DNA of 64,000 bases, taken from Nitrospirota bacterium (GTDB lineage: Bacteria > Nitrospirota > Nitrospiria > Nitrospirales > Nitrospiraceae). The notes beneath the pieces are model-generated. The model worked only from the letters and a program-made list of their open reading frames with translations, made no database searches and was not told where the DNA came from. Made by a program: the position numbers and the translations under genes. Location: contig JAUSMA010000071.1 of NCBI GenBank assembly GCA_030645475.1, forward strand, positions 62,001 through 126,000, given 5' to 3'. Positions 3,915 through 60,560 of the stretch are shown in pieces. The first letter of the stretch is position 1. Every line of letters begins with the position of its first letter.

Positions 3915-4796
3915 TTACCGCTGTGCTTCAAGCACAAACGACGAACTGTATGGCACATAGCGGCAATCAGTAATTTTCTGTCCGGAGACCAGCTGGGCGA
4001 GTTGCTTGTGCAATGGTGCCATGTCTTCGTCTCGAATGACGGCCGACGGCAGACCATGAAAATGCACAGGATAGATTGCTCTGGGACGCAGCCCATGCTT
4101 GCGCATGCGAGCCATGAGATCGGCTGGAGAGAATTGATACCGGGTATCGACCTTGATTCCGGTAATGGGATGCAACTCTGGCTGAGGATACGTCCTTTCA
4201 AGCTGAGTCAGTCTGCGTATCGCTTCCTCCTGCGATGCGCTACCTTGCAACACAATCGATTCGGACAGCAACGACTTGACCGTTCCGAGTTCCATCTCGA
4301 GTTCAGTGAAACAGTTGAGGGAGTGGAGATTGAATAGCCGATTTCGAGAGCCCAACGCCAGTGAGCCTCCGGGGACAAGGGTCTTAACGCAATTTGAGAG
4401 AAAGATATCCATTTGCTCAAGGGAAATATATTCAATGAACCCCTGCGCGCTAATTACGTCGAAGGTGTCGTCTGGCAATGAAATGTCAAAAAAAGACCCG
4501 CATTGAAACTCGGCATCGACCTGTGCGTGGAGTTTATTGGATTCGCATTTGACGATCATTTCCCGGGAAAAATCGAGGCCACTGGCCTTAATGCCTAGCT
4601 TCGCTACGGCGATGACCAGTTGACCGGTTCCACAGCCGACGTCGAGGAATCGTTTGACTTGGTTATGCTGCTCTATGACCGTGAGTACGGCGGCATGCCG
4701 ATTGTCGATGACGCTGTAATCAGCTTGCGTGGCCTTTGTCTGCCAGTCATCAGCATGCGTCGAAAAATAGTTCAGGGTCTGATTTTGTTGGTCCAT
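3915..4796 (-). CDS. Class I SAM-dependent methyltransferase
   Basis: A 293-residue protein with a clear SAM-binding motif I (RFLDVGCGTGQLVIAVAKLG, near residues 50-70), followed by GLDFSREMI (motif II) and DTFDVISAQGFIEYI (motif IV region). The substrate cannot be read from sequence. Its place between the deacetylase and a NeuB-type synthase suggests methylation of a sugar in the surface glycan. It is transcribed in the same direction as its neighbours with gaps of 16-31 bp, so it is probably part of the same operon. Confidence 0.8.
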   Translation of the reverse strand: MDQQNQTLNYFSTHADDWQTKATQADYSVIDNRHAAVLTVIEQHNQVKRFLDVGCGTGQLVIAVAKLGIKASGLDFSREMIVKCESNKLHAQVDAEFQCGSFFDISLPDDTFDVISAQGFIEYISLEQMDIFLSNCVKTLVPGGSLALGSRNRLFNLHSLNCFTELEMELGTVKSLLSESIVLQGSASQEEAIRRLTQLERTYPQPELHPITGIKVDTRYQFSPADLMARMRKHGLRPRAIYPVHFHGLPSAVIRDEDMAPLHKQLAQLVSGQKITDCRYVPYSSSFVLEAQR

Positions 4797-16310: not shown

Positions 16311-18098
16311 TCACCGCGCCTTCATCGCCCTAAAGGTCTCGTTTTCCTCCATCAATTCGTCATGGCGGCCTTGCCCCACCACTCGACCATGTCGCAGCAA
16401 GTAAATCTGGTCACACTCGCGTACGGTGGTGAGGCGATGGGCGATGAGAATAATAGTAACCTTCTTCCCTAGGTTGTGAACCGCATCCATTACGGCCTGT
16501 TCCGTAAGGTTGTCCAGCGCGCTGGTAGCTTCATCAAGAATCAGCACCTGCGGGTTGTTATACAGAGCACGGGCAATGCCGATCCGTTGACGTTGACCAC
16601 CCGATAGACGCACGCCCCGCTCACCGACAGTGGTTGCGTAGCCATGGGGCAATTCATTGGTTACGAAGTCGTGCAGGTTGGCGATGCGAGCGGCGTTCGC
16701 TACGGCGTTTTGATCGATCTGCTCAGGCGCCACACCAAAGGCGATATTGGCCGCTACTGTGTCATCGGCCAGATAGATATGTTGAGGCACATAGCCAATA
16801 ACGCGCTGCCACTGGCGACGGTTCTCTGGACCAATCACCGTGCCGTCGACGGCCAGGGTGCCACTGCTGGGATCCAGCAGGCCCAGGATCAGGTCCACAG
16901 TGGTGGTCTTGCCGCTGCCGGTGGTCCCCACCAGACCAATGGTGCTGCGCGCCGGGATGGTGATGTTGAGATCCACCAGAGCAGGCTGTGCGGCATTGGG
17001 GTAGGTGTAGGTGATCTCTTTAAGCGTGATGGCCTGGTTCAGTATGAACTGTGCAACCTGAACATACGAGGGCTGTTTCGGCGCGAGGGCTATAAGGTCA
17101 GCATGCAGGGCGTTGAGGCTCGGCCCGGCGAAACGCAAGGCCGTGATGCTCACATAGATTTGCTGCAGAGCTGGCATCAACCGGTAACCGGCAAAGGCGT
17201 ACAACGCAATGATGGGCAATGCCTTCGCAATACCGCCTGTGCCCGCCATAATATACAGCACGACCAGCACCATGCTGCCAAAGGCCAGAGCCTCTAGCAC
17301 AAACCGCGGCAGTTGGGCGATGATTTGGCTAGAGGCTTGATGCCCGGCGAAAATCTTCGCCGGACGAGCGAAACGTTGGATATACGATTCTTCGAGACCG
17401 CCCACCTTGATTTCCTTGATGCCGCCAAAGGCCTCACTCACTACGGTGAAGCGCATCTTATTGGCCTCTAAACACTCGGAACCGATGCGCGACAGATAGC
17501 CGCGCATGAGCTTAAGGATGACCCCATAGGCCAAACCCAACACCCCCCCTACAACCAAAGCCAGCCACGGGTCTGCCGCGAGCAGCAGCATCAGAAGCAT
17601 GAGCACCACTGCACTCTGTGCCACTAGTTGCATCATCGGTATCATCGCGCCGCCAATAACCTTGTTTACCTCCGACAACACCGTCTTGCCCAAATCCGCG
17701 CTGTGACGATTCAAGAACCAGGCGTACGGCTGGTTCAGGTAGCCCGCCACCAACCTTCGGCCGATGCTGTATTCACGCATCATGGTAAAGCGCAATTGGA
17801 CGTAGGTGACCAATGCCTTGAAAGTGATAGAAACCAACAGGGCCATAAAAACCATCACACCCGTAAAGTGCAGAAAGGCCTGACGGTCCGTAAAGCCGAA
17901 CATGTCGTAGATGCGCGCGAGAATCGCGTTTGTCTCGATCACTTCCGGGTTGGCCAGCACCGCCATAAAAGGCACGATCGACGCCACGCCGCCCACTTCG
18001 AGGAACGCCATGACCAGGATCATGCCCAGCAGTAGAACCGCGCGGCGGCGTTCATGGGGCGCCAGGAGATCGAGGAGTTTTCTGAAGGTCTTAATCAT
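16311..18098 (-). CDS. ABC transporter, fused permease and ATPase (PglK/MsbA-like glycan flippase)
   Basis: A 595-residue half-transporter. The first 330 or so residues hold about six membrane segments (for example VLLLGMILVMAFLEVGG and AVVLMLLMLLLAADPW). The ATPase domain has Walker A GTTGSGKTT, the ABC signature LSGGQRQRIGIARAL, Walker B VLILDEATSALD and a final switch histidine in IILIAHRLTTV. In an O-antigen-type locus with no visible Wzx, this is the best candidate for flipping the lipid-linked glycan, like PglK in the Campylobacter N-glycan system. It is the first complete gene after the degraded antiterminator. Confidence 0.85.
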   Translation of the reverse strand: MIKTFRKLLDLLAPHERRRAVLLLGMILVMAFLEVGGVASIVPFMAVLANPEVIETNAILARIYDMFGFTDRQAFLHFTGVMVFMALLVSITFKALVTYVQLRFTMMREYSIGRRLVAGYLNQPYAWFLNRHSADLGKTVLSEVNKVIGGAMIPMMQLVAQSAVVLMLLMLLLAADPWLALVVGGVLGLAYGVILKLMRGYLSRIGSECLEANKMRFTVVSEAFGGIKEIKVGGLEESYIQRFARPAKIFAGHQASSQIIAQLPRFVLEALAFGSMVLVVLYIMAGTGGIAKALPIIALYAFAGYRLMPALQQIYVSITALRFAGPSLNALHADLIALAPKQPSYVQVAQFILNQAITLKEITYTYPNAAQPALVDLNITIPARSTIGLVGTTGSGKTTTVDLILGLLDPSSGTLAVDGTVIGPENRRQWQRVIGYVPQHIYLADDTVAANIAFGVAPEQIDQNAVANAARIANLHDFVTNELPHGYATTVGERGVRLSGGQRQRIGIARALYNNPQVLILDEATSALDNLTEQAVMDAVHNLGKKVTIILIAHRLTTVRECDQIYLLRHGRVVGQGRHDELMEENETFRAMKAR

Positions 18099-18155: not shown

Positions 18156-18248
18156 GCGTCGTGAGAGGCAATCTACGGGATAATAACGAAACGCGCCTCT
18201 GTCACCCACCCTCGCAATGTTGCATGGGGACTGCCTCTGTATGCCACT

Positions 18249-18477
18249 ACGCTGGCACCGAATCCCGCACATCGATCTCCACCGCCGCCTGCTGAATCAA
18301 CCGACACCAAACTATACGCCTGGACACTTTTCTTTTTGGAAAAGATCTCGTGCACTCCCAGAAGCGGCTCTTGCACAACCTCCACTATGATGCTTCTGGA
18401 GATATGCGTGTGAGTCGTATAGCCGCGCACTGGTCATCAGAGTCCTGAGTGCCGCAATCTCCGCGTCCATCATCGGC
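18249..18477 (-). pseudogene. Degraded NusG/UpxY-type antiterminator, C-terminal remnant
   Basis: The DNA aligns along its whole length to the 3' half of the intact antiterminator gene at 20755-21261. Shared stretches on the plus strand include CACATCGATCTC, TGCTGAAT, CTTTTCTTT, CACTGGTCAT and GCCGCAATCTCC, with indels that break the frame. Only the KOW-domain part and a bit of the linker survive; the NGN domain is absent. It lies between a methyltransferase and the ABC flippase, where a second operon-leading antiterminator would be expected. Confidence 0.8.
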
Positions 18478-18493
18478 TCATGCGCTCAACTGT

Positions 18494-19234
18494 TTAGAAA
18501 TCCCCTCGGGTAGATCCCTTCTCCAGCACGACGAGCAGTCGAAAGGCGAGATATCGACTCAATACGCCCAGGAGACGTTCAAGAGCTAGAAGGGGAAGTG
18601 CCATCCACGTCGACATCAAAGAAGGATGATCAAAACCGCCGCTAAGCGGATAGGCGAAGAAGGCTAGGCGATGGTGGCGGAGTTTTCTCAAGCTTGGATA
18701 CAACTCGTGAAAACGCCTGCTCGATCGCTCAAATAGAATCGTCGCAATGGCCTGGTTCGCGTCAAATGGTTTTCGTCCAGCCTTCATAGGGCTCAATGTA
18801 AGAGGATCTTGACTGAAATCCACCGGCTCTGGATGCAGGAAATGGTAGACGGGCCAAGAGCAGACCGAGATATATGGGTCCATAATGATGATGCGGCCGC
18901 CAGGCTGCAGTATGCGGAGTGCCTCATCGAAGAAGTACCGAATGTTTTCAAGATGGTGCATGGTGTCAACTAGCACGATATTGGCAAAACTGCCGCTTGT
19001 GAATGGGAGCCGCTGCGCATCCACGACCGCGTCTAACCACGGCAAGCTAACGATATCGGTACAGACCACGGACGGGGCAAACTCCTTGAGATTCCCTGTC
19101 CCACCGCCGACTTCGAGCGTTCGCCCCGGCTGAAGCCATCCGGCGATCTCTCGATACCATTCCCCGTAAAGCATCCGAAGCAGGGGCTTTTCCTGCCAGA
19201 CCATCTGGTGTCGCCGTAAAATCTCATCGGACAT
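18494..19234 (-). CDS. Class I SAM-dependent methyltransferase
   Basis: A 246-residue protein from an ATG that overlaps the upstream stop as TAATG. GRTLEVGGGTGNLKEF is SAM motif I, followed by VVCTDIVSLPW, NIVLVDTMHHLENI (motif IV region) and ALRILQPGGRIIIMDPY. The C-terminus is hydrophobic (ALPLLALERLLGVLSRYLAFRLL), which suggests membrane association. The substrate is unknown. Translational coupling to the methyltransferase-glycosyltransferase fusion upstream suggests a joint role in handling a lipid-linked sugar. Confidence 0.8.
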   Translation of the reverse strand: MSDEILRRHQMVWQEKPLLRMLYGEWYREIAGWLQPGRTLEVGGGTGNLKEFAPSVVCTDIVSLPWLDAVVDAQRLPFTSGSFANIVLVDTMHHLENIRYFFDEALRILQPGGRIIIMDPYISVCSWPVYHFLHPEPVDFSQDPLTLSPMKAGRKPFDANQAIATILFERSSRRFHELYPSLRKLRHHRLAFFAYPLSGGFDHPSLMSTWMALPLLALERLLGVLSRYLAFRLLVVLEKGSTRGDF

Positions 19235-20703
19235 TACACAGCCTTCAGCCGGAAGAAACCATACACCGTCATCTTCAGCAGGAGCCACCCATGCGTGAAG
19301 CGATGGATATTAGTAGTCCCGTAGGTTCGCTCCTGGTAACGGATGGGCACTTCGAGAATCTTGAGATTGAGCTTGGACGCCCCGAACAGCAGATCGAAAT
19401 CACCGAAGGGATCGAACTCGCCGAAATATGATCGATTCGCGACAATGCGTTCGTAGTCTCTCCGGAACAATACTTTCGTTCCACAGAGCGTGTCCTTAAT
19501 CCGTTCACCGAGTAACCAGGAAAACGCCATGCTGAAAAACTTATTCCCCAACAGATTCAGATAGCGCATGGCTTCGTGTTCCATGGGATAGACCAGTCGG
19601 CTTCCATTGATGAACTCCCCCTTGCCGCTCGTAATCGCCTCATAGAATTTAGGGAGGTCTTCCGGAGGCATCGTGAGATCCGCATCGAGAATCATGAGAA
19701 TGTCCCCCGTGGCATGCGTAAAGCCCTTGCGCACGGCGTCGCCCTTGCCCTTTCCATCTTGCACGAGCAACGTGATGTCTTTCTCAGGATATTGCGCGAT
19801 CACCCGCTGAATCTCATCGGGAGTTCCATCCGTCGAATGGCCATCGACGAAGATAACCTCTTGATGACGGCCAAAAGAGGGAAGACGCGCGACAGCCGCC
19901 TCGATGTTCCCTTTCTCATTGCGGCAGGGAATCACGACCGTCACCGTCTGCGGTTCATGCGCAGCCACGGTGCGCATCCGGGCCACCATATAGTGACAGA
20001 GACACAGATGAGTCAGTCCTGGGAAATAGGCCAGAAATCGATTCGCGATGCTCGAAAGAATCGGGATGCCCAGAGGCATCAACAGACGCCGTTCCGCCTT
20101 CACGACCTCAAAGTCGGCCAGCCGGAGAAGATTTCTGATATCCGCTGGCGAAAGCCAGCTTTGCTCCTCTTGCGGCATTTTCAGGTCTACCTGCTCCAGC
20201 AATCTGAGGACGGGCTCCCACAAGAAATTGTAGTACGCAATGACAATGCGAGTCGTGGGAGTACAACAGCGACGGAGCTGCTTCAATGTCGCTTCAACGT
20301 CGAGCACATGTCCGACGAGATCGACGAGCAGAATGACGTCGAATGTCTCATCAAGTGCCAGCGCTTCTCCATCTCCGACCAGAAATTCCAATTCCGGGTG
20401 GCGCCTGGTGGCTTCCCTGACCATGGCCTCACTGAGATCAATCCCTAATCCACGCTGTGGTTTGAGCGCCGCAAGCTGGTCACCCAACCCACATCCAATT
20501 TCCAACACCCTCAGGCCCTCCGGTATCAAAAACCGGAGGTAGCGTCGCTGATCGTTGTAATAGCAGGATGCCCGCCATTGCCACGATTCTCGTTCAGACG
20601 CTAAGCGGTCGAATCGATCCCGAATGGCCTGCTTCTTGAGCATCGCTCTCTGGCCGAGAGACTGTGAAGGGGAAAGCTGCGGGGATACAGCGACTGAGTT
20701 CAT
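19234..20703 (-). CDS. Fusion: SAM methyltransferase plus GT2 (DPM1/ArnC-like) glycosyltransferase
   Basis: The first half (to about residue 235) is a methyltransferase domain with LRVLEIGCGLGDQLAAL, GLGIDLSEAMVREA and FDVILLVDLVGHVLD. The second half is a polyprenyl-phosphate-type GT2 domain: VTVVIPCRNEKGNIEAAV, EVIFVDGHSTDGTPDEI, GKGKGDAVRKGF, LMILDADLTMPPEDL and DTLCGTKVLFRRDYERI. This resembles the family transferring a sugar to undecaprenyl phosphate. The start is uncertain: ATG at 20703 is used, with possible starts at 20739 and 20643. The gene follows the antiterminator by about 50 bp and is translationally coupled to the methyltransferase below it. Confidence 0.8.
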   Translation of the reverse strand: MNSVAVSPQLSPSQSLGQRAMLKKQAIRDRFDRLASERESWQWRASCYYNDQRRYLRFLIPEGLRVLEIGCGLGDQLAALKPQRGLGIDLSEAMVREATRRHPELEFLVGDGEALALDETFDVILLVDLVGHVLDVEATLKQLRRCCTPTTRIVIAYYNFLWEPVLRLLEQVDLKMPQEEQSWLSPADIRNLLRLADFEVVKAERRLLMPLGIPILSSIANRFLAYFPGLTHLCLCHYMVARMRTVAAHEPQTVTVVIPCRNEKGNIEAAVARLPSFGRHQEVIFVDGHSTDGTPDEIQRVIAQYPEKDITLLVQDGKGKGDAVRKGFTHATGDILMILDADLTMPPEDLPKFYEAITSGKGEFINGSRLVYPMEHEAMRYLNLLGNKFFSMAFSWLLGERIKDTLCGTKVLFRRDYERIVANRSYFGEFDPFGDFDLLFGASKLNLKILEVPIRYQERTYGTTNIHRFTHGWLLLKMTVYGFFRLKAV

Positions 20704-20754
20704 TATGCAACGGCTAAATGTCGCGAAAGGAGCATACAATCGTGGAACAGACGC

Positions 20755-21261
20755 CTAGGCCGGCACCACATCGTTCACATCGATCTCTACTGCTGCGGCT
20801 TGCTGAATGAGGCGAACACCCAATACCAAGCGGTGGTGCTTTTCTTTACGCAAGAGAATTCCGCGAACCCCTTGCAACGGACCTCGAATTACTTCCACCT
20901 GCATGCCCTCGTGCAGATACGGATGCGAATCATACGGCAGCACACTGGTCATGAGAATTCTGAGCGCCGCAATCTCCTCGTCCTCGATCGGTTCCGGACA
21001 ATGGCTGGCACCGACAATATCAACCACACCGATCGTCTTCAACACCGGCAGCTTTTGGTCAGATGCAAAGCGGACAAAGCAGTATCCAGAAAAGAGAGGA
21101 ACCTCGACCTCTTTTTTCCGATCCTTCCATTGGCTCAGTCGCTTGACCGTCGGCAATAACGGCTCAATCCCCTGATTCGCAAGCTGGTCGCGCACGATCT
21201 TTTCATGACGAGATCGCGTCCGCAATGCATACCAACGTGACTGCGACTGAGGTCCGAGCAC
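20755..21261 (-). CDS. NusG/RfaH/UpxY-type transcription antiterminator
   Basis: A 168-residue NusG paralogue. The N-terminal NGN domain starts RWYALRTRSRHEKIVRDQL and contains FSGYCFVRF; the C-terminal KOW domain reads GMQVEVIRGPLQGVRGILL and ends in EIDVNDVV. Specialised NusG paralogues such as RfaH and UpxY are encoded at the head of long polysaccharide operons and let RNA polymerase read through them. Position and length fit the UpxY group. A degraded second copy lies at 18249-18477. Confidence 0.88.
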   Translation of the reverse strand: MLGPQSQSRWYALRTRSRHEKIVRDQLANQGIEPLLPTVKRLSQWKDRKKEVEVPLFSGYCFVRFASDQKLPVLKTIGVVDIVGASHCPEPIEDEEIAALRILMTSVLPYDSHPYLHEGMQVEVIRGPLQGVRGILLRKEKHHRLVLGVRLIQQAAAVEIDVNDVVPA

Positions 21262-21295
21262 AGCTCCGCCCTTTCACTTACAGATCCAGATCGCA

Positions 21296-21305
21296 CGTAC
21301 CGCAC
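21296..21305 (-). promoter_or_regulatory. Putative antiterminator loading site (ops-like), copy 1
   Basis: On the minus strand GTGCGGTACG followed by TG lies 35 bases before the antiterminator ATG. GCGGTACGTG differs from the core of the RfaH ops site (GCGGTAGCGTG) by one missing base. The same decamer precedes the ABC flippase gene at 18146-18155. The assignment rests on resemblance and position only. Confidence 0.35.
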
Positions 21306-21337
21306 ACATTTCCGCCGCGCACGAACGCGGCCTGGGC

Positions 21338-21925
21338 TTATACCCGTAGGCCGAGGCTCAACACCTTTTCTCGAAGCACGCCCGACTGGACTAACTGCTC
21401 TTCACAGGCTGACGCATGCTCGAGATCCGTAATCAAGACCCAATCAAATTGCCATCGACTCACCTGGTCAGGTGAAGAAACGGGGCAAGACAGAAACGAC
21501 TCACGCGCGCTTCCGTCAATAAATCCTACACAATCAATATTCATCTCTCGAAGCGACAGATAGGCCAATTCGGCTAATTCAGTCGTTCCGTAGATCACCA
21601 CCCGCTGACCATGCGAGCCGTCGAGCCTGGACATCATCTCTTTAAGCCGAGCACGCATGTCTCGGTAGTACGAGAGAGAGTGCTGCATATAGAGATAGGT
21701 CAGTCGAGACTTTTCTGCGAGTCCTTGCGGGGTCAACAGATACTGAATGCGGTTGCGAGGGATGGTGGTGATCTTGATGCAGCCCTTGCGAGCGAGACGC
21801 TTGAGATACAGATTCGTCAGGCCAAGCGCCACACCAAGTTTCGTCGAGAGTGATCGCTGCGTCACGCCAGCGTCGCGCTCGACTTCTGAGAGCAAAAGGA
21901 GATCCCGTTGACCTTGTACGTTCAT
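21338..21925 (-). CDS. Winged-helix regulator with C-terminal Rossmann-like sensor domain
   Basis: A 195-residue protein. Residues 8-75 form a MarR/LrpA-like winged helix: TQRSLSTKLGVALGLTNLYL is the helix-turn-helix and GCIKITTIPRNRIQYLLTPQG the wing. After a helical linker, RVVIYGTTELAELAYLSL looks like the first strand and glycine loop of a Rossmann-like fold of the type seen at the start of PglD-like or CoA-binding domains. It sits immediately before the antiterminator gene, so it likely controls transcription of the glycan locus, perhaps in response to a nucleotide sugar or similar metabolite. The ligand is unknown. Confidence 0.78.
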   Translation of the reverse strand: MNVQGQRDLLLLSEVERDAGVTQRSLSTKLGVALGLTNLYLKRLARKGCIKITTIPRNRIQYLLTPQGLAEKSRLTYLYMQHSLSYYRDMRARLKEMMSRLDGSHGQRVVIYGTTELAELAYLSLREMNIDCVGFIDGSARESFLSCPVSSPDQVSRWQFDWVLITDLEHASACEEQLVQSGVLREKVLSLGLRV

Positions 21926-21950
21926 GAGCACAACCCCAACAGAGCGTTGC

Positions 21951-57902: not shown

Positions 57903-57939
57903 GTTTCAATCCTCGCCCGTCCCGAAGGACGGGCGCTAC
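57903..57939. CRISPR. Single orphan CRISPR-like repeat of a different type
   Basis: The 37 bases begin GTTTCAATCC, contain a perfect 9-bp hairpin CGCCCGTCC-CGAA-GGACGGGCG, and end in CTAC. Read on the other strand it ends GGATTGAAAC, the 3' handle typical of many type I-C, I-B and III repeats. It is unlike the type I-E repeat of the array that begins 30 bases later. No second copy is seen in the window. Confidence 0.65.
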
Positions 57940-57969
57940 GATGTCTCCCGGCAAGCGGTTGCCCAGACC

Positions 57970-60560
57970 TAGTTCATCCCCACTCGCGTGGGGAACACGG
58001 CCTGTGCTTTCGTCATGGGCTGCTCCAATCCGGTTCATCCCCACTCGCGTGGGGAACACGGCAATGCCGAGGCGAGCGAGTCGTTCTATCACGGTTCATC
58101 CCCACTCGCGTGGGGAACACCCAGTTGCGCCCATCGTCGTGACCCGATCATGCGGTTCATCCCCACTCGCGTGGGGAACACGCCAGCTTCCGATTCTCCC
58201 ACGTACTCATCGCCGGTTCATCCCCACTCGCGTGGGGAACACTCGAGCAATGGAAAACTCTCCCGTATCCCCTACGGTTCATCCCCACTCGCGTGGGGAA
58301 CACAGCTGGCCATCATGGCAAACGCCTCGGCATGGCGGTTCATCCCCACTCGCGTGGGGAACACCTGGTATTCCGACTTCCTCTCAGATGATCGGGCGGT
58401 TCATCCCCACTCGCGTGGGGAACACACTAGCCCCGTTGAATTGCCCGAAAGGGTCGGCGGTTCATCCCCACTCGCGTGGGGAACACTCTGGCTCCTGCCT
58501 GTTCCATTCCCAGAACAGCGGTTCATCCCCACTCGCGTGGGGAACACCCGCGCACGACATCCCAGACCACCACCGCCGCCGGTTCATCCCCACTCGCGTG
58601 GGGAACACGGAGACTACCACGATTTCACGTCACGCGATTCCGGTTCATCCCCACTCGCGTGGGGAACACGCTTGCCCGGTATGCCCATGTCGGATAATCG
58701 CCGGTTCATCCCCACTCGCGTGGGGAACACATCGGCACCGGAACGACTCCGTTCAATGAGAACGGTTCATCCCCACTCGCGTGGGGAACACGTCCACATT
58801 GAACACCTCAGTTTGGAAATAGACGGTTCATCCCCACTCGCGTGGGGAACACGTTCCAATCCGAGAGGGAGGGGTCCGGTGTACCGGTTCATCCCCACTC
58901 GCGTGGGGAACACAGAGCCTGGCAGAATCCATCCGCACCCACGGCCGGTTCATCCCCACTCGCGTGGGGAACACACCCGCGTGGTCAAGGGGAACTCGAT
59001 CAAAAACGGTTCATCCCCACTCGCGTGGGGAACACAGCGAGAGCAGCCGGGCGGTGGCGTGCTCCAGCGGTTCATCCCCACTCGCGTGGGGAACACTCGT
59101 CGAGTTCAGTCAGGCTCATGCGCAGTTCCGGTTCATCCCCACTCGCGTGGGGAACACGTTCACATCCATCACTTGCAACTCCAAGCCGTCGGTTCATCCC
59201 CACTCGCGTGGGGAACACCACCTGGCACGATCCTCATGTGAAGGAAAGGTCGGTTCATCCCCACTCGCGTGGGGAACACAGAGGAAAGGCCATCGAGCAC
59301 GGATGTACCTACGGTTCATCCCCACTCGCGTGGGGAACACAACATTGACAGGGTTGGGCGACTTGGGGCATTCGGTTCATCCCCACTCGCGTGGGGAACA
59401 CTAGACCTAGATTTCCTTGACCATCCTAAAACGCGGTTCATCCCCACTCGCGTGGGGAACACCCTGCTTGCATCCGTTCTGCATATTCCGCGACCGGTTC
59501 ATCCCCACTCGCGTGGGGAACACTGCTATAGTATTAACAATTTGACCATAAATCCCGGTTCATCCCCACTCGCGTGGGGAACACGTTTACCCCCCGAAAA
59601 CGAGAATCTACATCACCGGTTCATCCCCACTCGCGTGGGGAACACGAGTCGATTAACACAGGCGTAGAATGTCACGACGGTTCATCCCCACTCGCGTGGG
59701 GAACACCACCATAACACGATTGCAGTGGGGTGCAATGACGGTTCATCCCCACTCGCGTGGGGAACACTCCACATGAAAAAGAGGCTACCCCTCTACCCGC
59801 GGTTCATCCCCACTCGCGTGGGGAACACAGTACACCGATTCATCACATGTGCTCCGCTGTCGGTTCATCCCCACTCGCGTGGGGAACACTTTTTTCGAGC
59901 AGAAAATTTTGACCAACGACCCGGTTCATCCCCACTCGCGTGGGGAACACTCAGTGGGGAGAATTTTGATATCGACGTGGTGCGGTTCATCCCCACTCGC
60001 GTGGGGAACACGATCCAGGCCGCATTGTTGACAGACGGAAAATCGGTTCATCCCCACTCGCGTGGGGAACACTATCCAACATTCGTGCGGTTCAGCTAAT
60101 CGAACGGTTCATCCCCACTCGCGTGGGGAACACTAATCTTCTCGTCAATGCACAGCCGCACTGCGCGGTTCATCCCCACTCGCGTGGGGAACACAATGCA
60201 CGATGCCTAATTCAACCTTGCCAAGGCGGTTCATCCCCACTCGCGTGGGGAACACACGAGCCCCGTCGAGTTTCCCGAAAGGGTATGCGGTTCATCCCCA
60301 CTCGCGTGGGGAACACTCCGAGATCCGCACTGTGCCCGCGATGGATGTCGGTTCATCCCCACTCGCGTGGGGAACACGTCCACATTGGTCACCTCAGTTC
60401 GGAATTAGACGGTTCATCCCCACTCGCGTGGGGAACACAGAATAGCCAACCGATCCACGTCCGGGCACAGCGGTTCATCCCCACTCGCGTGGGGAACACG
60501 GCGTCCATTCGATCCTGCAACCACGATATCACGGTTCATCCCCACTCGCGTGGGGAACAC
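57970..60560 (-). CRISPR. Type I-E CRISPR array, 43 repeats and 42 spacers
   Basis: A 29-base repeat recurs every 61 bases: 43 starts at 57970 + 61n (n 0-42). On the minus strand it opens GTGTTCCCCACGCG and ends GGGGATGAACCG, the I-E form with a CCCCAC/GTGGGG hairpin. Every spacer checked is 32 bases. The first repeat on the left is damaged at its outer end (TA for CG), the usual sign of the old, leader-distal end. Leader and cas genes are on the right, so it is transcribed leftward. Confidence 0.97.

What the first reader, a model, noticed from the sequence alone, without database searches (positions are those of the whole stretch)
18249..18477. Dead second copy of the operon antiterminator marks a seam in the glycan locus
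The DNA is a frame-broken copy of the 3' half of the intact NusG/UpxY-type gene at 20755-21261. Antiterminators of this type head glycan operons, so the remnant suggests that 1-18.1 kb was once an independent locus with its own antiterminator, joined to the block headed by the intact copy, perhaps by recombination between the two.
Basis: seen in the sequence. Interest (0 to 1): 0.6.

Follow-up and report, generated by a model that had tools for sequence, protein, structure and literature searches.

The report
Displaced antiterminator tail marks gene capture
A dead tail-end copy of the regulator gene that heads a bacterial sugar-coat operon is the scar of an old gene insertion, and the same scar recurs in related genera, which suggests that these surface-sugar loci grow by slotting new genes in directly behind their regulator.

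Summary
Confirmed. Window 18247-18482 (-) is a frame-broken copy of the 3' half of the UpxY-family antiterminator gene at 20755-21261 (-) (blastn E 6e-13; nhmmer E 1e-38). It codes for nothing recognisable.

It is not a one-off. Around 77 intact upxY heads plus one contig without an intact head, I found 19 partial upxY copies at E<0.01. All 19 are on the head's strand and, where a head is present, downstream of it; 18 are 3' pieces. The neighbouring regulator gene left none. Everything upstream of upxY is conserved; the first gene behind it varies widely.

Relatives give unoccupied arrangements. In G139 a 6.6-kb glycan block separates intact upxY from a upxY 3' remnant still collinear with NTase-HEPN genes that stand directly behind intact upxY in G104. 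G028, G104 and G022 give similar pairs.

Best reading: new genes are captured directly behind the head, by recombination anchored in the conserved head and joined at the other end inside upxY, so the old 3' end is pushed downstream. Here the captured pair is probably 18494-20739, and the remnant belonged to the flippase block at 1-18.1 kb. Rhs/T6SS C-terminal displacement is the known analogue.

The parts
18247..18482 (-). upxY remnant: displaced, frame-broken 3' half of the antiterminator gene (profile 244-485 of 486)
   Evidence: blastn E 6e-13, nhmmer 1e-38/1.2e-35, 5 indels; stops in frame
18482..18494 (-). junction between the stop of the captured methyltransferase gene and the first recognisable upxY base
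   Evidence: MTase ORF ends at 18494, remnant homology starts at 18482; MTase end conserved in G027 and G028
18494..19288 (-). captured gene 2: class I SAM methyltransferase
   Evidence: Pfam; same position behind upxY in G027 and G028; its 3' end is left as a fragment in G003, G005, G010 and G019
19234..20739 (-). captured gene 1: methyltransferase-GT2 fusion
   Evidence: Pfam; directly behind upxY also in G027 and G028, and behind upxY plus a TA-like pair in G022 and G014
20755..21261 (-). intact upxY, antiterminator and operon head
   Evidence: Pfam NusG 2.2e-20; NCBIfam antiterm_UpxY 116 bits, cut-off 100
21338..21931 (-). conserved upstream regulator, winged-helix, MarR_EPS-like; part of the conserved head
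   Evidence: TIGR04176 62.7 bits, below its cut-off of 88
16311..18098 (-). ABC flippase; first gene of the block that once followed the remnant's upxY
   Evidence: Pfam; relatives behind intact upxY in G124 (61%) and G106 (39%)

Best explanation
The remnant is the displaced 3' end of an earlier upxY copy. In this bacterial family the surface-glycan locus has one conserved head (MarR_EPS-like regulator, often a four-helix-bundle gene, then upxY), and new genes enter directly behind upxY. Incoming DNA that carries a related head plus cargo pairs with the conserved head and crosses over in or before upxY. Its other end is joined without homology somewhere between that crossover and the old first gene, often inside the resident upxY. 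The result is a whole (hybrid or donor) upxY, then the cargo, then the truncated 3' half of the old upxY, then the old operon. Cargo can be glycan genes or NTase-HEPN and other toxin-antitoxin-like pairs. Here the cargo is the two genes at 18494-20739 and the old operon starts with the ABC flippase at 18098. The useless remnant then decays. Shown: the remnant, its 3' bias, orientation and position across genera, and unoccupied arrangements for four other loci. Inferred: homology-anchored illegitimate joining, the order of events in this genome, and the hybrid nature of the intact gene.
For: (1) 19 partial copies in 78 loci: all on the head's strand and, where a head is present, downstream of it; 18 of 19 are 3' pieces (p 8e-5; 13 of 14 by a conservative hand count of distinct events, p 0.002); reversed control none. 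(2) The adjacent regulator gene left no partial copies at E<0.2 in the same stretches. (3) Genome-wide search in 32 genomes of the genus finds 3'-half DNA matches only at the head and just behind it, apart from one 24-bp match. (4) Unoccupied arrangements: the G139 remnant + NTase + HEPN aligns as one 1142-bp piece to intact upxY + NTase + HEPN of G104; DNA behind the remnants of G028, G104 and G022 lies close behind intact upxY in G122, in G147 and G158, and in G027/G028/G000. (5) The same two-gene cargo sits behind upxY in relatives with different DNA following it. (6) Flippase relatives behind intact upxY in G124 and G106. (7) In the window's genus the agreement of upxY with the upstream regulator's distances falls from rho 0.58 at the 5' end to -0.17 at the 3' end, as expected if 3' parts were swapped. 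(8) Junction points vary, so no fixed site.
Against: No genome with the exact unoccupied arrangement for this window was found; the G124 flippase has one gene between it and upxY. PHI on upxY is only p 0.055, and the genus with 50 heads shows no mosaic signal. The AU test rejects neither a local duplication of the window's own upxY nor another origin. G005 carries a small-gene 3' end plus a upxY 5' piece, which fits a larger head duplication. No donor molecule or event has been observed.
Confidence: 0.72

Rival explanations
1. Fusion of two complete loci or duplication of the whole head (for example single-crossover integration of a circle), giving head, genes, head, genes; the inner head then decays by random deletion.
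For: G005 has a four-helix-bundle 3' end followed by a upxY 5' piece behind the same methyltransferase, and a second such small-gene fragment. Jackson 2009 (PMC2935791) proposes circular intermediates for the similar Rhs pattern.
Against: Random decay should leave 5' and 3' pieces equally; 18 of 19 are 3' pieces. No remnant of the adjacent regulator gene was found.
Confidence: 0.17
2. Site-specific integration into the upxY 3' end, as islands integrate into gene 3' ends, with the displaced 3' end as an attachment-site copy.
For: Position and orientation fit, and the cargo includes toxin-antitoxin-like pairs.
Against: Junctions range from profile position about 206 to 417; no integrase was seen in the cargo examined, though not every cargo gene was scanned.
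Confidence: 0.06
3. Simple local tandem duplication of upxY followed by decay, unrelated to gene capture.
For: The AU test cannot exclude that the remnant groups with the window's own upxY (p 0.28); the G003 remnants group with its own upxY.
Against: Genes separate the copies in nearly all cases, and unoccupied arrangements exist in relatives. The window's own upxY is only the 20th best match to the remnant.
Confidence: 0.04
4. The remnant is kept as a functional element (leader RNA, promoter, terminator or small protein).
For: An 85-aa ORF overlaps it.
Against: No Pfam or NCBIfam match for that ORF, no Rfam match at the locus, promoter- and terminator-like sites near chance, and loss of coding constraint.
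Confidence: 0.01

Closest known systems
Rhs C-terminal displacement (Jackson 2009, PMC2935791)
   Same: A conserved 5' part stays in place, new DNA enters behind it, and displaced 3' parts pile up downstream.
   Different: In Rhs the displaced tip is the variable C-terminus. Here the displaced part is the conserved 3' half of a regulator, and the cargo is separate glycan or toxin-antitoxin-like genes.
Sequential displacement of T6SS effector-immunity modules (Kirchberger 2017, PMC5361080)
   Same: Proposed homology-facilitated illegitimate recombination with an upstream anchor; repeated insertions push older material back, including a displaced effector 3' end.
   Different: The anchor here is a transcription antiterminator heading a polysaccharide operon, and the remnants have no retained function that I could see.
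UpxY-headed capsule loci of Bacteroides (as described in PMC7593976)
   Same: The antiterminator is encoded within the polysaccharide operon it activates.
   Different: I found no report of displaced upxY remnants there in the open-access papers searched; no upxZ was looked for here.
Integron cassette arrays
   Same: Newest cargo nearest the head, older cargo pushed back.
   Different: No integrase or common recombination site was seen, and junctions vary.

Membership tests
UpxY family antiterminator (NF033644), intact gene | Score above the curated cut-off | tested here: met
   116 bits against cut-off 100
UpxY family antiterminator (NF033644), intact gene | NusG N-terminal domain | tested here: met
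   PF02357 E 2.2e-20
UpxY family antiterminator (NF033644), intact gene | Encoded at the start of the polysaccharide genes it would control | tested here: met
   Followed on the same strand by glycan genes; position conserved in relatives
UpxY family antiterminator (NF033644), intact gene | Antitermination activity on its own operon | not testable with these tools
   needs a transcription assay
C-terminal displacement array (Rhs/T6SS type) | Conserved 5' gene with displaced 3' ends downstream on the same strand | tested here: met
   18 of 19 partial copies
C-terminal displacement array (Rhs/T6SS type) | Displaced 3' ends are diverse alternative C-termini | tested here: not met
   Remnants align to the same conserved upxY 3' half
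C-terminal displacement array (Rhs/T6SS type) | Unoccupied arrangement present in relatives | tested here: met
   G139/G104, G028/G122, G104/G147+G158, G022/G027; not found for the window's own remnant
Homology-facilitated illegitimate recombination | One homologous and one non-homologous junction | tested here: inconclusive
   Distal junctions vary inside upxY; homologous crossover supported only by the correlation decay in one genus
Site-specific integrative element | Integrase and fixed attachment core | tested here: not met
   Variable junctions; no integrase among the cargo scanned

The most novel reading that the evidence does not exclude
The conserved upxY head acts as a standing gene-capture point, integron-like in effect: glycan and toxin-antitoxin-like cassettes repeatedly enter behind it and are at once under antiterminator control, so the row of upxY 3' scars is a readable record of the order of acquisition, and capture there is favoured by mechanism or selection beyond ordinary recombination.
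Probability: 0.15. Interest if true: 0.75.

Novelty: new variant of a known kind. Interest (0 to 1): 0.5.

Why it matters
How O-antigen and capsule loci gain genes is usually inferred from finished gene orders. Displaced upxY ends mark the entry point and orientation of single past insertions, and the pairs found here let the process be tested strain by strain. It also extends the displacement mechanism proposed for Rhs and T6SS loci to operons headed by an antiterminator, where cargo placed behind the head would come under its control.

Tried and rejected
Chance similarity: rejected (shuffles, reversed control). Genome-wide dispersed repeat: rejected; apart from one 24-bp match the 3'-half DNA matches lie only at this locus type. 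Functional ORF or RNA at the remnant: no support. Placing the remnant on a tree: inconclusive. PHI test on upxY: p 0.055. Seeking the flippase block in other phyla: flippase relatives at up to 67% identity, but no collinear block and no upxY hit in the fetched loci. Association of NTase-first loci with remnants: 5 of 6 against 8 of 71 (p 0.0004), but the genomes are related and it is not clear within the window's genus, so only noted. The first pairwise alignments printed nothing because of a parsing slip and were redone.

Full report
Observation. The intact gene at 20755-21261 is on the minus strand. Its 3' half recurs at 18247-18482, same strand, 68% identical by blastn, E 6e-13 within the window; nhmmer with intact orthologues gives E 1e-38 and 1.2e-35, with no hit in reversed controls. 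The copy has four single-base deletions and one 3-base deletion against the genus consensus and two stops in frame. Second-codon positions have changed more than in intact orthologues. Third positions have still changed most, so part of the divergence may predate the loss of function (inference).

Identity of the head. The intact protein passes the UpxY family cut-off (NF033644, 116 bits against 100) and carries the NusG domain. The window's genome has two strong NusG-domain genes, this one and one elsewhere. In relatives the order upstream is conserved: shared genes, a winged-helix gene resembling MarR_EPS, often a four-helix-bundle gene (23S_rRNA_IVP), then upxY. Behind upxY content varies: the first genes of 77 loci match 70 Pfam families.

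The remnant is one of many. I fetched 60 further heads from the family and searched 78 loci, 1.18 Mb. Nineteen partial upxY copies pass E 0.01, in 13 of the 77 loci with an intact head plus the contig G031. All are on the same strand as the head and, where a head is present, 0.2 to 6.6 kb behind it. Eighteen contain only sequence from the 3' part; the exception is a 5' piece in G005. The 5' half is at least as conserved as the 3' half in the two genera compared, so detection bias does not explain this. The neighbouring regulator gene gives no partial copy at E<0.2. In 32 genomes of the genus, 3'-half DNA matches occur only at these loci, apart from one 24-bp match. Copies are not all independent: the weak copies of G010 and G022 are alike and were counted as one event, as were those of G138 and G139, and some of the G003 copies share flanks, giving 13 of 14 by hand count.

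Unoccupied arrangements. In G104 intact upxY is followed by an NTase and a HEPN gene; G139 has the same pair preceded by a upxY 3' remnant, and the stretch remnant-NTase-HEPN aligns to intact upxY-NTase-HEPN in one 1142-bp piece, while 6.6 kb of glycan genes now separates it from G139's intact upxY. DNA behind the G028 remnant lies close behind intact upxY in G122, of another genus (79% over 1446 bp). DNA behind the G104 remnant lies behind intact upxY in G147 and G158. DNA behind the G022 remnant lies behind intact upxY in G027, G028 and this genome.

Cargo. Between head and remnant lie glycan genes (here, G019, G028, G038, G139) or NTase-HEPN pairs (G005, G016, G022, G039, G104); Phd/ParE-like or MazE/PIN pairs lie next to remnants in G003 and G031. 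Whether these pairs act as toxin-antitoxin systems was not tested; MntA scores were below the curated cut-off.

This window. The methyltransferase-GT2 and methyltransferase genes (18494-20739) also stand behind upxY in G027 and G028, and the first of them behind a TA-like pair in G014 and G022; what follows them differs. The remnant starts within 12 bp of the second gene's stop and is followed after about 150 bp by the ABC flippase. Flippase relatives behind intact upxY exist in G124 (61%, one gene between) and G106 (39%, directly). Either the pair was captured in front of a resident flippase block, or the flippase block arrived on a upxY copy behind the pair; the data do not decide, and the AU test places the remnant nowhere firmly.

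Mechanism. The pattern fits an anchor in the conserved head and a non-homologous join between the crossover and the old first gene. Joins inside upxY leave 3' pieces, which explains the bias. Kirchberger 2017 (PMC5361080) proposes this for T6SS arrays, and Jackson 2009 (PMC2935791) describes C-terminal displacement for rhs. In the window's genus the correlation of upxY with the upstream regulator decays from 0.58 to -0.17 along the gene, but PHI is not significant and the other genus tested shows no such decay to zero. A search of open-access papers found no account of upxY remnants; that search covers only part of the literature.

Verdict. A real scar of gene capture; a new variant of a known displacement pattern, of moderate interest.

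Noticed in passing
window 57966-59400 and onward: CRISPR array with 61-bp period, repeat GGTTCATCCCCACTCGCGTGGGGAACAC, 24 copies in the stretch examined; a separate CRISPR-DR9 repeat match lies at 57903-57939 (-) beside it.
   Followed up: partly
L113 2076-2974; L123 8894-9798; L095 10992-14460; L069 5812-6617; L064 3483-4225; L075 98-3082: NTase-HEPN and other toxin-antitoxin-like pairs sit directly behind upxY or next to upxY remnants in several genera.
   Followed up: partly
L063 5620-9829 (G003): Four upxY 3' remnants in a row behind one intact upxY, with small ORFs and two toxin-antitoxin-like pairs between or beside them.
   Followed up: partly
G003, G005, G010, G019 loci (coordinates): The 3' end of the captured methyltransferase gene also recurs as fragments behind upxY, so other genes leave 3' scars too.
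   Followed up: partly
L075 2176-2212 and 3517-3553 (G031); L064 about 4295-4338 (G016): A 37-41-bp sequence, inverted in G031, and short AGACCAGA-like repeats lie beside the upxY remnants.
   Followed up: no
L076, L077, L078: A second UpxY-like head (about 55% identical) stands before a conserved gene set in three genomes, with no upxY remnants found behind it.
   Followed up: partly
window 21262-21337: The four-helix-bundle gene that precedes upxY in most relatives of the genus is missing here, with only 76 bp between regulator and upxY.
   Followed up: no
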